Origin: Pseudofrankia saprophytica | GTDB lineage: Bacteria; Actinomycetota; Actinomycetes; Frankiales; Frankiaceae | DNA: 64,000 nt | Assembly (NCBI RefSeq): GCF_000235425.2 | Contig: NZ_KI912266.1 | Span: 1,409,823 to 1,473,822, forward strand | Direction: 5' to 3' | Shown here: piece after piece, positions 49,338-64,000 of the stretch | Numbering within the stretch: the first letter of the stretch is position 1 | Layout of the letters: each line of letters begins with the position of its first letter | The notes under the pieces: generated by a model | Told to the model about the DNA's origin: nothing | Databases searched by the model: none | What the model saw: only the letters and a program-made list of their open reading frames with translations | Made by a program: the position numbers and the translations under genes

Positions 49338-49909
49338 TGGCAGAGTCAGACACTCGCGCGCTGCGTGCGGACGCGACCCGCAACCGCAACCAGCTCCTCG
49401 ACGTGGCGACCCGCGTGTTCGTCTCTGCCGACGGCACTGAGCCGTCCATGCGCGCGATCGCACGCGAAGCTGGGGTCGGCATCGCCACGCTCTACCGACA
49501 CTTCCCCACCCGCGAGTCTCTCGTCGACGCGATCTACCGTGATCAGGTCGCGCGGCTCACCGCTGGCGCCCGCGAGCTACTCGCCCAGCTTCCCCCGCCC
49601 GCGGCGCTACGACGCTGGATGGACCTGTTCGGGGACTGGATTGCGACCAAGAACGGCATGCTCGACACACTGCTCGCGATGATCGAATCAGGCGAGATCG
49701 CCCATGCCCAGACCAGGACCGAGCTGCTCGCAGCCATCGACGCCATCCTCGCCGCCGGCCGTGCGACGGGCGAGCTCCGCTCCGATGTCACCGCCGAAGA
49801 CATCGCCGCCAGCCTCATCGGCATCTTCACCGTGGCCCACCCACCCGACGACGCCAGAGCAGGTCGGCTGCTGAACATTCTGATGGACGGCCTACGGCCT
49901 ACACCTTGA
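49337..49909 (+). CDS. TetR-family transcriptional regulator
   Basis: A 190-residue repressor with helix-turn-helix FVSADGTEPSMRAIAREAGVGIATLYRHFPTRESL and a TetR_C-type ligand domain. The TTG start at 49337 is used because a CGGAG purine site lies about 10 nt upstream and the longer frame covers the divergent gene. Divergent from the quinone oxidoreductase. It likely senses an electrophile or quinone, inferred from its target. Confidence 0.9.
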   Translation: MAESDTRALRADATRNRNQLLDVATRVFVSADGTEPSMRAIAREAGVGIATLYRHFPTRESLVDAIYRDQVARLTAGARELLAQLPPPAALRRWMDLFGDWIATKNGMLDTLLAMIESGEIAHAQTRTELLAAIDAILAAGRATGELRSDVTAEDIAASLIGIFTVAHPPDDARAGRLLNILMDGLRPTP

Positions 49910-50196
49910 GCCGCTCCTCTGGCGCGAACAGCGCGGCGTTCGAGGCGAGGCGATGTCAACAACCCCGTGAGAGAGAGCGCCTAGTCGAGCCCGCGCCCGC
50001 GACCACGAGCCGAAGCGCACAGAAGATCGCCTGCCTGGATCTTGTCGTTTTCGCCAGGGAGGCGACATCCGGCCTGGGAAACGACGCGCGGCACGGGAAC
50101 CTACAGATTCGTATCTATCGGCGACAGTGCGTCATCGTTTATTGTGACTTAATGGAGGTTAAGCGGCAGTACACGAGGTGAGGGGCGTCTTCACGG

Positions 50197-60809: not shown

Positions 60810-60842
60810 GGAAACAGTTTCCCAATCTGGAAACATTGTCAA
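60810..60842 (-). promoter_or_regulatory. Promoter with palindromic operator for VOC-ArsR-SRPBCC
   Basis: On the minus strand TTGACA (60842-60837) lies about 30 bp before the ATG, so transcription could begin at the start codon. GGAAAC-A-GTTTCC (60810-60822) covers the -10 region, and a further GGAAAC lies at 60829-60834. The palindrome is the likely ArsR site. Confidence 0.55.
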
Positions 60843-61297
60843 GCGGCTGGCTCGACGGGCTGTCCAGAGGTCCAGCGTCGGCCGCCTGTCGGGGGCACAC
60901 CTCCGAGTCGTTGGCCCGCTGCCTCCACAGCCCCGCGGCCAGGAGGACGAGTAGAAACACGGCCCCATCAGGCGCGCGGCGCCGGGGTACACCCACCCAC
61001 GGCCAGCGATCGGTCCCGCCCTGCCCCGGCCCGTCATCTTCACGGACGTCGGCGCCCGCGCCGTCCGAGCCCATGGTGAACGCGGCTTCGCCACCACTTG
61101 GTACCTGGCACCCCCTGACCGCTATCGCGCCCGCCCGCCCGCGCCGCGTCAGCGCCACCGACCGGGCCATCTTCCGCTCGGCCAAGGACATCCGGGAAAA
61201 CCTGGACAGGAGAACATCGCTGTCGATCACGGCGACATGCGGCCCGTCCTTGTGATGACCGCATACGACCGAACAATCCATTTTCAGGGAGGAACGC
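60843..61297. other. Spacer before the deacetylase gene
   Basis: About 455 bp with no supportable gene. It ends in a strong AGGGAGG ribosome site (61286-61292) for the deacetylase. GC content drops near 61250-61300. Confidence 0.35.
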
Positions 61298-63082
61298 ATG
61301 CAATTTGACGTCGCTCCGGTGAGCCTGACAAGCGATGAGCCTGGACCTTTCGTGGTCTGGGCTGGCGACGACGGCTACGACACCCAGGCGGGATATTTCT
61401 CCCTGCTCGCCTCCAACGGGATCAAGGGAACATTATTCCTGTCGGTTGACTGGGTGGACCAGGCCGGGACGTCTCCGGTATACGGGGACTCGTACATCAC
61501 CACCGCACAGGTTGCGGCAATCGTCTCCGCCGGCCACGAGATCGCCACGCACGGCAAGAATCATGAAGATCTTGGGACCTACTACCTGACATACGGTGCG
61601 GTGGCGCTCGATCTCCTGCTAGGTGCCGCCATCGGCGACATTCAATCGAAATTCGGCTTCTCGGTCAAGACGGGTTCCTACCCAGGCGGGTCGGCGAACG
61701 ACCGGGTGAAAGAAATAGTCAGCCGGCGGCACGAGTTCTTCCGCTGTAGCCGGGGTGTGGTCAGCCGAAACGCGCCGGATCCCTTCGACGTCCCGGGAAT
61801 AGACATCCTCGCCCCGTCCCAGGCGACCATCGAGGGGTACATCGACGAGGCCGTGGCGAACCGCAGCATCGTCGTCCTCTTCCATCATGGATCCATTGAT
61901 TCGACGCAGCTGACCAAGGTGTCGAACCTGATTTCCTACGCGGCTGGCGTGGGATGCGACCAGGGGACTTTCTACCGGGCGATGAGCCAGCGGAGCAAAT
62001 GGCTGTCGACGCGTGCGCTGATCGATGCCCAGGGCAACGCCTTCCATCCGGTCGTCCACACCAACGAGCTGATCGTCGACCGCAACGACAATATCGGTGA
62101 CCACTACGTTCTGGATCTGGACGAATCGACCAACGCACCATTCATGGACGCGACGAGTGGAACGCCATTTGAGTTCAGAAAGGACCTCCTCGCGCTCGGC
62201 ACATTTTATGTGGGGCGCCGTCGGGTGTTCGAGGACTTCACGACGACCAACAGTTCGACGACCGTCTCGTCGGGGAGCGCGGGATTCCGGGCCGATGACG
62301 TGGGTCTCTCCATCAGCGGTGCCGGCATCCCGGGCGCCACGACGATCGCGTCCATCGTGTCCCCCACCGCGGCCACCATGTCGGCTGCTGCGACGGCCAC
62401 TGCCACAAACGTGACGGTCACGGTCAACCGGCCCGTGTCGGGTGGCGTCACGTCCGCGGGAGAAATGCGTCTGTACAACGGGTTGGCCATTTACGGGACC
62501 ACGTCGCAGGCGGTGTCCTTCGGGCGCCTCGAATCGACGTTGGAAGGGTCCATCAGCGCGAACCAGTGGCTCAACAACGGTACGGCCGGCTCCGGTGGGG
62601 AGATGACCGTCGACTCGGGTACCGGCGGATCATACGTGAACATCAAGGCGTTCGCGACCAGAATCCGAAGCGAGGCCAACACGATACATCTGCGTCTGGG
62701 TGCCGCCAAGGATGGAATCGATTTCGGCGCGGCCGAGGACGTGACACTCGAACGGGACGGGAGCGGAAACCTCCTCGCCAATGTGACTCTCCAGACGGGT
62801 GGCGACCTGATCGTAGGCAACGCCGGAAACGGGCTCCTGGTCAAGGAGGGGACCAACGCGCGCCTCGGTGCCGCCACGTTGTCCAGCGGCGCGGCCACGG
62901 TCACCACAAGCGCCGTCACCGCGAACAGCCGGATCTTCCTGACCCCGCAGAACCTGTCCGGGGTCGGCACACCTCAGCCGATAGGTGTGTCCGCGAGAGT
63001 CGCGGGAACGAGCTTCACGATCACGTCGGCTTCCTCGAGCGACACTTCGACCATCGGCTGGATGATCGTGGAGCCCGCCTGA
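61298..63082 (+). CDS. Polysaccharide deacetylase domain joined to a phage-tail-fibre-like tail
   Basis: A 594-residue protein with no signal peptide. The N-terminal NodB-like domain (about 15-225) has D24 and D25 (WAGDDGYDTQ), H85 and H89 (ATHGKNHEDL), a TGSYPGG segment and FHHGSID, all near the expected metal and catalytic positions. The rest (about 300-594) is rich in Ser, Thr, Ala and Gly, with TTTNSSTTVSSGSAGF, PGATTIASIVSPTAATMSA and SSDTSTIGWMIVEPA. These resemble phage tail-fibre and minor structural proteins. Codon use is less GC-rich than its neighbours, so recent transfer is possible. It may act on a glycan at a cell or phage surface. Confidence 0.8.
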   Translation: MQFDVAPVSLTSDEPGPFVVWAGDDGYDTQAGYFSLLASNGIKGTLFLSVDWVDQAGTSPVYGDSYITTAQVAAIVSAGHEIATHGKNHEDLGTYYLTYGAVALDLLLGAAIGDIQSKFGFSVKTGSYPGGSANDRVKEIVSRRHEFFRCSRGVVSRNAPDPFDVPGIDILAPSQATIEGYIDEAVANRSIVVLFHHGSIDSTQLTKVSNLISYAAGVGCDQGTFYRAMSQRSKWLSTRALIDAQGNAFHPVVHTNELIVDRNDNIGDHYVLDLDESTNAPFMDATSGTPFEFRKDLLALGTFYVGRRRVFEDFTTTNSSTTVSSGSAGFRADDVGLSISGAGIPGATTIASIVSPTAATMSAAATATATNVTVTVNRPVSGGVTSAGEMRLYNGLAIYGTTSQAVSFGRLESTLEGSISANQWLNNGTAGSGGEMTVDSGTGGSYVNIKAFATRIRSEANTIHLRLGAAKDGIDFGAAEDVTLERDGSGNLLANVTLQTGGDLIVGNAGNGLLVKEGTNARLGAATLSSGAATVTTSAVTANSRIFLTPQNLSGVGTPQPIGVSARVAGTSFTITSASSSDTSTIGWMIVEPA

Positions 63083-63489
63083 AACTCCACGGTCCCGCCG
63101 GAATACTGCTCCGGATTCTTGCCATGTCCTGAGGGGACGGGGGCCCGGGGCGGAAGGAACCGAGACGGTCCTGGCGGAGAAGCCCGCGGTCGGGCTGCGT
63201 CCACGCCACACCACGGGATCATTCCGCCAATCGGGCATAACCTCATGGCCTACGCGCCGAGGACGTCTGGAGAAAAACCCGCCCCGCGCCGCCGCCGTAC
63301 CTTACCTCGGGCTTGTCCGGCGGAGTCGGACTCCCGCCTTCAGCGTGTCCTCCGCGATGTCGCGATGGATATCCGCCAGACTTGACGGGCCAAGGGGAGG
63401 ACGCGACACCCGCCGGTTTGGCGCGCCATGAGGCCGACTGGTTCCGCTGATATCGGCGTCTCGACGGACGATACGGACTAGGAGCAGTA
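63083..63489. other. Spacer before the TylF-type gene
   Basis: About 400 bp without a gene I can support. A GGAG ribosome site (63481-63484) leads to the next start. No promoter or repeat is evident. Confidence 0.35.
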
Positions 63490-64000
63490 ATGGAACTTTC
63501 GCATGTCGATTCCGCCGAATTGGCGGGCCGTTATCTGGACCTGCTGCGAGAAACCCTCACTTTTTCACTCTGGGAGGGGCGGGACGGCAGGATCTGGCGG
63601 CCCCGCCGCGCGGCGCACCGCGTCCTTTTCCGACTTCTCGAGGCGCGCGGACTGGAACTGGTCCGATACAGCGCCGCCGGCGCGCGTGACGTGGGTGGGG
63701 ACTGGCCTCGGCTTGCGCACACCATGACGGGAAGCCGTCGCCTGAAGCAGCTTCAGGAGGCGGTCGAGCAGGTACTCGCCGATGATGTTCCCGGGGACCT
63801 TATCGAGACGGGTGTCTGGCGGGGTGGGTCCGCCATCATGATGCGCGGCGTCCTGGCGGCACACGGTGTACGCGACCGTACGGTATGGGTCGCCGACTCG
63901 TTCGCCGGTCTGCCGGCGCCCAATCCTGAGCGGTGGCCGGATGATGCCGGAGATCCCCACCACAAATGGACCGAGCTCGTGGTGTCCGAGGCCGAGGTGC
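63490..64000 (+). CDS. TylF/MycF-family O-methyltransferase (3' end missing)
   Basis: 170 residues are in the window and the frame is open at its end, so the gene is partial. The protein shows SAM-binding GDLIETGVWRGGSAIMMRGVLAAHGVRDRTVWVADSFAGLPAPNPERWPDDAG, diagnostic of macrocin O-methyltransferase TylF. Family enzymes methylate sugar hydroxyls with Mg2+ and SAM. The start ATG 63490 follows GGAG at 63481-63484. Neighbourhood of the deacetylase suggests a glycan-modifying or antibiotic cluster further right. Confidence 0.88.
   Translation, partial: MELSHVDSAELAGRYLDLLRETLTFSLWEGRDGRIWRPRRAAHRVLFRLLEARGLELVRYSAAGARDVGGDWPRLAHTMTGSRRLKQLQEAVEQVLADDVPGDLIETGVWRGGSAIMMRGVLAAHGVRDRTVWVADSFAGLPAPNPERWPDDAGDPHHKWTELVVSEAEV

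What the first reader, a model, noticed from the sequence alone, without database searches (positions are those of the whole stretch)
61298..63082. Deacetylase with a phage-tail-fibre-like tail at a composition change
The NodB-like domain has its catalytic residues, but no signal peptide, and the last 300 residues look like phage structural repeats. This could be a phage-derived glycan-editing protein, a tailocin part or a domesticated gene. It lies at the border where codon use changes.
Basis: partly seen in the sequence, partly recalled or inferred. Interest (0 to 1): 0.7.

Follow-up and report, generated by a model that had tools for sequence, protein, structure and literature searches.

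The report
Phage-tail-like deacetylase kept by Frankiaceae
Some soil and root-nodule bacteria keep, as a free-standing gene with no recognisable virus around it, a protein built like a virus tail spike that carries a sugar-deacetylating enzyme, so a viral tool for editing cell-surface sugars seems to have become a bacterial gene.

Summary
The ORF is real: 594 codons, 61298-63082. Residues 1-236 are a CE4/NodB-type deacetylase domain with metal and catalytic residues invariant in 8 of 8 copies. The C-terminus is K1-lyase_C (PF24146, E 1e-25), found at the end of phage tail spikes and fibres; residues 311-377 resemble a phage decoration protein. No signal peptide; no internal repeat.

It does not look like a prophage or tailocin part. 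Of 35 Frankiaceae genomes, 8 (the window's included) carry it at full length (78-90% identity to the window's copy, no indels, dN/dS 0.15-0.44); no phage structural gene was recognised among scanned neighbours. The window's genome has no sheath or HK97-type capsid hit. PF24146 was found nowhere else in 393 sampled genomes of the class. The gene has changed site with its 5' region, and its phylogeny conflicts with rpoB.

Unexpectedly, a secreted-type RCC1 propeller has orthologs (83% identity or more) in exactly the same 8 of 35 genomes, adjacent in four, unlinked in four.

Best reading: a domesticated phage receptor-binding deacetylase acting on a kin or neighbour surface glycan after release from lysed cells. 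Architecture and retention are shown; activity, substrate and release are inferred.

The parts
61298..63082 (+). Gene of the phage-tail-like deacetylase, 594 codons, stop included
61287..61292 (+). Ribosome-binding site GGGAGG; a G-rich site stands before the same start in the other seven copies
61298..62005 (+). CE4/NodB-type deacetylase domain, residues 1-236; D24-D25, H85-x3-H89, H197
   Evidence: Pfam PF01522 E 2e-9 (7); invariant residues; model pLDDT 71.8 and fold matches
61988..62227 (+). Linker region, residues 231-310, no match found
   Evidence: no match in phage records by tblastn for 231-381 (48); no Pfam match over cut-off
62228..62428 (+). Phage decoration-protein-like domain, residues 311-377
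   Evidence: PDB 8eci, E 6.6e-5 single sequence, 3.8e-8 profile; weak PHROG 32881 match E 0.0025 (52)
62429..62764 (+). Part without sequence match, residues 378-489
   Evidence: no phage match for residues 377-500 (51); full-length model too poor to use
62765..63079 (+). Tail spike C-terminal domain, residues 490-594 (K1-lyase_C at 520-591)
   Evidence: PF24146 E 9.8e-26 (7); PHROG 24355 E 1.1e-25 (8); Streptomyces phage proteins 52-62% identity
60879..61045 (.). Dispersed repeat upstream of the gene; 7 other copies read in G031, G032 and G008, 5 of them beside transposase-like frames (recognised by eye)
60834..60843 (.). Left synteny border: colinearity with G029, G030, G033 (60843) and G031 (60834) ends here
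61083..63153 (+). Unit shared with relatives whose flanks differ (gene plus about 215 bases before and 70 after, in the window-G033 and window-G017 pairs); ends vary by pair
63490..64000 (+). TylF-type O-methyltransferase, runs past the window end; first gene of a surface-polysaccharide cluster
   Evidence: PF05711 E 2.5e-122 (19)

Best explanation
A domesticated phage receptor-binding enzyme. An ancestral tail spike or minor tail protein, with an N-terminal CE4-type deacetylase and a C-terminal K1-lyase_C foot, was captured by Frankiaceae, lost its virion, and is kept as a free-standing gene that changes site and is exchanged between genera. Shown: domain make-up, intact metal/catalytic residues, no phage structural gene among scanned neighbours, purifying selection, different sites in different genomes, co-distribution with a secreted-type RCC1 propeller. 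Inferred: (1) the C-terminus makes a trimeric, glycan-binding foot, as in the tail spikes that share it; (2) the CE4 head removes acetyl groups, probably N-acetyl, from a surface polysaccharide; (3) with no signal peptide the protein leaves the cell only by lysis (hyphal death, phage attack) or an unknown route; (4) deacetylating kin or neighbour glycans would alter adhesion or remove a phage receptor.
For: Phage-type modules in the tail. CE4 fold whose best VIA match is a virion protein, the HFTV1 turret (Z 19.9, rmsd 2.6, 203 aligned; next, cellular, 17.9); best viral-library match TMq 0.75, with three Arthrobacter minor tail proteins among the 19 hits at E <= 0.001, against TMq 0.66 or less in the 50 PDB rows shown. 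Distant CE4 relatives in 14 Gordonia phage records, 12 annotated minor tail protein (two loci read, 25, 40). Full-length copies in 8 of 35 family genomes, dN/dS 0.15-0.44 over 28 pairs (69, NG86). Right flank in the window's genome is polysaccharide synthesis; of 10 neighbours scanned at other sites none is a phage structural gene by Pfam. Gene dS for G029/G033 versus G017/G019/G021 (other genus) 0.115-0.205, against rpoB 0.303-0.343; AU test rejects the genus split (p 0.0138).
Against: No export route, no activity or expression data. The Gordonia relatives match at only 24-28% (21), and the five related viral-contig proteins aligned lack the second metal His (100). Residues 231-310 and 378-489 match nothing. 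PHROG 24355, named polysaccharide deacetylase, aligned to our protein only at its C-terminal end, so a phage ancestor with the whole architecture was not seen. No viral contig relative was found. The MT3 arginine of classic CE4 enzymes is absent (TGSYP). For the window's own group (own, G028, G032) the gene is not closer across genera than rpoB (dS ratio 0.95-2.0). The window copy does sit beside a polysaccharide cluster (19), which a cellular role would also predict.
Confidence: 0.55

Rival explanations
1. It is the detachable fibre of a particle (prophage, tailocin or gene transfer agent) encoded elsewhere in the genome, as the tail spike TspA, encoded at its own locus, serves the Rhodobacter GTA.
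For: Tail-spike build, single unlinked gene; TspA is co-induced with the GTA while its own neighbours are not, and it detaches from particles (PMC13420450, abstract and section 5 read). G019, G021 and G029 do have sheath genes and G021 a capsid gene (32, 104).
Against: The window's genome has no PF04984 sheath and no PF05065 capsid hit; sheath 3 of 8 holders and 5 of 27 others, capsid 1 of 8 and 5 of 27 (Fisher p 0.35 and 1.0, 117). Only these two marker families were tested.
Confidence: 0.15
2. A decaying remnant of a recently integrated phage, without function for the host.
For: Lower G+C than its neighbours and an IS-linked repeat upstream.
Against: 594 codons without indel or stop in 8 of 8 copies, dN/dS well below 1 (69), ribosome-binding site kept, no phage structural gene recognised at the site (19, 90).
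Confidence: 0.07
3. An ordinary cytosolic polysaccharide-biosynthesis deacetylase of the neighbouring cluster (HfsH-like) that acts on lipid-linked intermediates and happens to carry phage-like C-terminal domains.
For: Next to TylF, flippase-type, glycosyltransferase and epimerase genes in the window's genome; no signal peptide; NCBIfam HfsH is the best named family (E 4.4e-10, 29).
Against: HfsH score 39.6 against a cut-off of 400. The neighbours scanned at the G029, G017, G021 and G033 sites are not such a cluster. A 360-residue tail with virion-type domains is hard to explain in the cytosol.
Confidence: 0.13
4. A secreted effector that deacetylates chitin oligomers or plant/fungal wall sugars around the root.
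For: NodB-type fold; the family contains root-nodule bacteria (PMC9680954, abstract start in listing 102); co-occurs with a secreted-type propeller.
Against: No signal peptide. Absent from 13 of 13 genomes of genus g2 of the family. The tail foot resembles capsule-binding spikes.
Confidence: 0.08

Closest known systems
CE4 / NodB polysaccharide deacetylases (PF01522)
   Same: Fold, DD, H-x3-H and C-terminal His; Pfam score over cut-off
   Different: MT3 arginine replaced (TGSYP); no signal peptide; fused to a tail with virion-type domains
Phage tail spikes and fibres with K1-lyase_C (PF24146): Klebsiella K1 depolymerase (PDB 9k4a, weak match), Streptomyces phages BRock, pSt2308, phiSAJS1, Mischief19
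   Same: Same C-terminal domain at the very end of the protein
   Different: The six Streptomyces phage proteins scanned carry beta-helix, pectate-lyase-like or unassigned parts, no CE4 domain; they lie in tail gene regions
CE4 virion proteins: HFTV1 turret (PDB 8qpg), Gordonia and Arthrobacter phage minor tail proteins
   Same: CE4 domain as a virion surface domain; best fold match
   Different: CE4 is C-terminal in HFTV1 and Gordonia; 15-28% sequence identity
Phage tail deacetylases tested at the bench: Acinetobacter phage Aristophanes gp41, Pectobacterium phage Possum gp66; E. coli phage G7C gp63.1 as cited there
   Same: Tail protein that deacetylates a host surface glycan
   Different: SGNH-type esterases removing O-acetyl groups, in live phages (passages read)
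RcGTA TspA detachable tail spike
   Same: Tail-spike-type enzyme encoded by a separate host locus
   Different: TspA is co-produced with a GTA; no particle was found here

Membership tests
CE4/NodB deacetylase superfamily | Pfam PF01522 over gathering score | tested here: met
   37.9 bits, cut-off 23.1 (7)
CE4/NodB deacetylase superfamily | Catalytic/metal residues DD, HxxxH, C-terminal His | tested here: met
   invariant in 8 of 8; motif names recalled
CE4/NodB deacetylase superfamily | CE4 fold | tested here: met
   model pLDDT 71.8, pTM 0.74 (109); 46 PDB chains at E <= 0.001, nearly all named as deacetylases or CE4 esterases; Z to 19.9 (116)
Canonical CE4 enzyme with all five motifs | Motif 3 arginine (RxPxG) | tested here: not met
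   TGSYPGG or TGSYPYG in 8 of 8, one residue unresolved; motif recalled. So it is filed as a CE4-type domain, not as a canonical CE4 enzyme
CE4/NodB deacetylase superfamily | Deacetylase activity | not testable with these tools
   no assay
Phage tail spike/fibre (sequence kind) | Tail-spike C-terminal domain PF24146 over cut-off | tested here: met
   90.5 bits, cut-off 27 (7); same domain in 6 of 6 Streptomyces phage proteins scanned, 4 of them annotated as tail proteins
Phage tail spike/fibre (virion part) | Encoded among virion genes | tested here: not met
   no phage structural gene among 10 neighbours scanned in the window's genome and 10 at four other sites; the RCC1 neighbour has PHROG matches, one weak to a tail family (90)
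Tailocin / contractile injection system fibre | Linked or co-distributed sheath gene | tested here: not met
   3 of 8 holders, 5 of 27 non-holders, none in the window's genome
GTA-type unlinked tail spike | Co-distribution with a particle cluster | tested here: inconclusive
   PF05065 capsid 1 of 8 holders, 5 of 27 others; other particle genes not tested
HfsH oligosaccharide deacetylase | NCBIfam NF050820 over cut-off | tested here: not met
   39.6 bits, cut-off 400 (29)

The most novel reading that the evidence does not exclude
A two-part domesticated system: a phage-tail-type CE4 enzyme released by lysis and a signal-peptide-bearing RCC1 propeller, each moving as its own unit yet always kept together (8 of 8 holders, 0 of 27 others at 83% identity or more), which together recognise and edit a surface glycan of kin, for example to remove a phage receptor or mark self.
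Probability: 0.25. Interest if true: 0.75.

Novelty: new variant of a known kind. Interest (0 to 1): 0.52.

Why it matters
Virion-borne deacetylases that edit host glycans are known, and so are domesticated phage tails, but the latter are usually whole particles (recalled). A single tail-spike-type enzyme kept alone, exchanged between genera and paired in distribution with a secreted propeller would show that bacteria recruit phage receptor-binding enzymes as free glycan-editing tools. It gives a concrete test: does the free enzyme block phages or change aggregation of Frankiaceae?

Tried and rejected
Tailocin/eCIS fibre: sheath does not track the gene. Prophage: no phage structural gene among scanned neighbours and no HK97-type capsid in the window's genome. 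Cellular repeat protein: no internal repeats, and the tail's matches are phage. Viral relatives in IMG/VR by full protein, profile and C-terminus: pattern matches but no confirmed relative. Plasmids: none. The full-length model was too poor to use (pLDDT 37), so residues 237-594 have no tested fold. A shared operator between this gene and the RCC1 gene: none seen. The upstream repeat was first taken for a promoter motif; it proved dispersed. tRNA genes at the border as an integration site: none in the stretches nearest the gene (L002, L019). PDB sequence search with the deacetylase part alone found nothing at E <= 10. Papers: the listings of searches showed no title or abstract start describing this protein (the held library lacks most subscription journals); passages of PMC9862828 and PMC3483164 gave nothing on CE4 tail proteins.

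Errors: one search used an out-of-frame reference, repeated correctly as 51. The script stopped half way; the script failed at its last step and its rpoB comparisons between genera were misaligned by one codon, replaced (the gene values and AU test stand). In one search six relatives were read on the wrong strand; one search corrected this.

Full report
Observation. The frame 61298-63082 is open for 594 codons with a good ribosome-binding site. The window is G000:C1:1409823-1473822 of a 9.98 Mb genome. By matching contig lengths, its relatives include Pseudofrankia asymbiotica (G028), Pseudofrankia sp. BMG5.36 (G032) and Frankia sp. AgB1.9 (G033) in its own genus, and Parafrankia sp. EUN1f (G021) and P. 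colletiae (G017) in another. So it is, by inference, a Frankiaceae genome of the Pseudofrankia group.

Architecture. Pfam finds Polysacc_deac_1 at 23-142 (E 2e-9) and K1-lyase_C at 520-591 (E 9.8e-26). PHROGs finds a phage 'polysaccharide deacetylase' family and a minor tail family, both over about the last hundred residues. The PDB search finds a decoration protein at 311-377 and, weakly, the K1 capsule depolymerase 9k4a and the cyanophage tail spike 7eea at the C-terminus (E 0.022 and 0.11). D24, D25, H85, H89 and H197 are invariant in 8 of 8 copies; the classic motif-3 arginine is missing (motif knowledge recalled). There is no strongly hydrophobic N-terminus and no internal repeat.

Origin of the parts. 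The C-terminus matches proteins of Streptomyces phages at 52-62% identity (10 records, two phages counted twice). The same domain ends 6 of 6 such proteins scanned, among them a pectate-lyase-type tail spike and two beta-helix minor tail proteins. The deacetylase part matches 14 Gordonia phage records at 24-28%, 12 of them annotated minor tail protein; the two loci read lie just after minor tail genes. Five related viral-contig proteins keep DD, the first His, YP and the last His but not the second metal His. A model of residues 1-236 (11 sequences, pLDDT 71.8, pTM 0.74) has the CE4 fold. Its best VIA match is the HFTV1 virion turret (Z 19.9, rmsd 2.6, 203 aligned), ahead of cellular deacetylases (17.9 and below). 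The viral library gives TMq up to 0.75 and includes Arthrobacter minor tail proteins. The HFTV1 paper describes that turret protein as a trimer whose deacetylase-like domain would modify host glycans; its authors found no bacteriophage homolog for it (PMC12494034, passages). The full-length model failed (pLDDT 37), so the fold of the tail is untested.

Distribution. Of 35 genomes of the family, 8 carry a full-length copy (78-90% identity to the window's, all 594 residues without indel); a ninth reported hit is a 79-residue match at 36% and is not counted. In 393 sampled genomes of the class, 18 reach E 1e-5: the same 8, and 10 that match only the deacetylase part at 27-37%. PF24146 occurs in 8 of 393, always this gene. 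No relative was confirmed in viral contigs or plasmids.

Surroundings. To the right lie a TylF methyltransferase, glycosyltransferases, a flippase-type protein, epimerases and a hexapeptide protein: a surface-polysaccharide cluster. To the left, colinearity with four same-genus genomes without the gene at this site (G029, G030, G031, G033) ends at 60834-60843. Then comes a 140-180 base repeat, of which 7 other copies were read in G031, G032 and G008, 5 beside transposase-like frames recognised by eye. Three genomes (own, G028, G032) share this general site, with local rearrangement in G032. Four (G021, G019, G033, G029, across both genera) share another neighbourhood with a PALP gene (scanned in G033) upstream at varying distance and an RCC1 gene downstream; G017 has a third. 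In pairs such as G033-G017 only about 500 bases before the start to 120 after the stop are alike. Neighbours scanned outside the window's genome were 10 proteins from G029, G017, G021 and G033: RCC1, a GH26-like protein, an integrase-core transposase, a TIR-nSTAND1-WD40 protein and metabolic or regulatory genes, one without match. In PHROGs the RCC1 protein matches phage 'regulator of chromosome condensation' families and, weakly, a tail family (E 5.9e-7); this is the only hint of a phage structural link in the neighbours scanned.

History. rpoB separates the two genera (dS 0.303-0.343 between them). The gene does not: G029/G033 against the three Parafrankia-type genomes have gene dS 0.115-0.205, while G019-G021 (rpoB dS 0.044) differ by 0.229 and G028-G032 (0.066) by 0.597. 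For own, G028 and G032 against those three the gene-to-rpoB dS ratio is 0.95-2.0, so no excess similarity there. The genus split is rejected for the gene (AU p 0.0138). Exchange or replacement between lineages is the simplest account; unequal rates could contribute. dN/dS per pair runs 0.15-0.44 (NG86; 0.09-0.31 by YN00 in seven pairs), so the protein is under purifying selection. Gene G+C is 0.608-0.645 in the eight copies.

No particle. Sheath genes occur in 3 of 8 holders and 5 of 27 others, HK97-type capsid genes in 1 of 8 and 5 of 27, neither in the window's own genome (Fisher p 0.35 and 1.0). Two marker families do not exclude every particle type.

A partner. The downstream RCC1 protein (392 aa, signal-peptide-like N-terminus, seven RCC1 repeat stretches) has orthologs of 83-100% identity in exactly the 8 holders; among matches at E 1e-60 (21 of 35 genomes) none outside them exceeds 67%. 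In own, G028 and G032 the match begins at residue 33-41. In four holders the gene is adjacent; in the window's genome it lies 3.4 Mb away, and in four genomes it too is a unit with its own 5' region between unlike flanks. Fisher p is 4e-8 without correction for shared ancestry; no control set of other accessory genes was run, so a common history remains possible.

Reading. The protein is best seen as a phage receptor-binding deacetylase turned into a free-standing bacterial gene. Tail deacetylases tested at the bench edit host glycans, and pre-treating cells with Aristophanes gp41 blocks its phage (PMC8471582, passages; also PMC9569702, passages), which makes receptor editing a plausible benefit. 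Those enzymes are SGNH-type esterases; a CE4 head suggests N-deacetylation (established knowledge of the family, recalled). Secretion is the open problem. The RcGTA tail spike TspA (PMC13420450, abstract and section 5) is the nearest model of a separately encoded, detachable spike, but no particle was found here.

Noticed in passing
L015:7378-8553 (G029), G000:C1:4845917-4846996: RCC1-repeat protein with a signal-peptide-like N-terminus whose close orthologs occur in exactly the 8 of 35 genomes that carry the deacetylase gene, linked in four and unlinked in four.
   Followed up: partly
L092 (window's genome), about 113 bases before the aligned RCC1 start; also L093, L094: Near-palindrome CTCTGTGTAC-N8-GTACACAGAG (2-3 mismatches in own, G028, G032; not found by the same script in the other five, though the alignment shows a similar stretch); looks like a regulator site. 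None in the window.
   Followed up: no
60879-61045 and L065-L069, L053, L054: A dispersed 140-180 base sequence, in 5 of 7 copies read beside transposase-like frames; probably part of a mobile element.
   Followed up: partly
L015:11713-15990: In G029 a 1425-residue TIR - nSTAND1 - WD40 protein lies upstream of the deacetylase unit; it resembles a defence-type STAND protein (resemblance recalled).
   Followed up: no
49543-49962 (-): Predicted ORF with the second most atypical codon use of 83 in the region; may be spurious or foreign.
   Followed up: no
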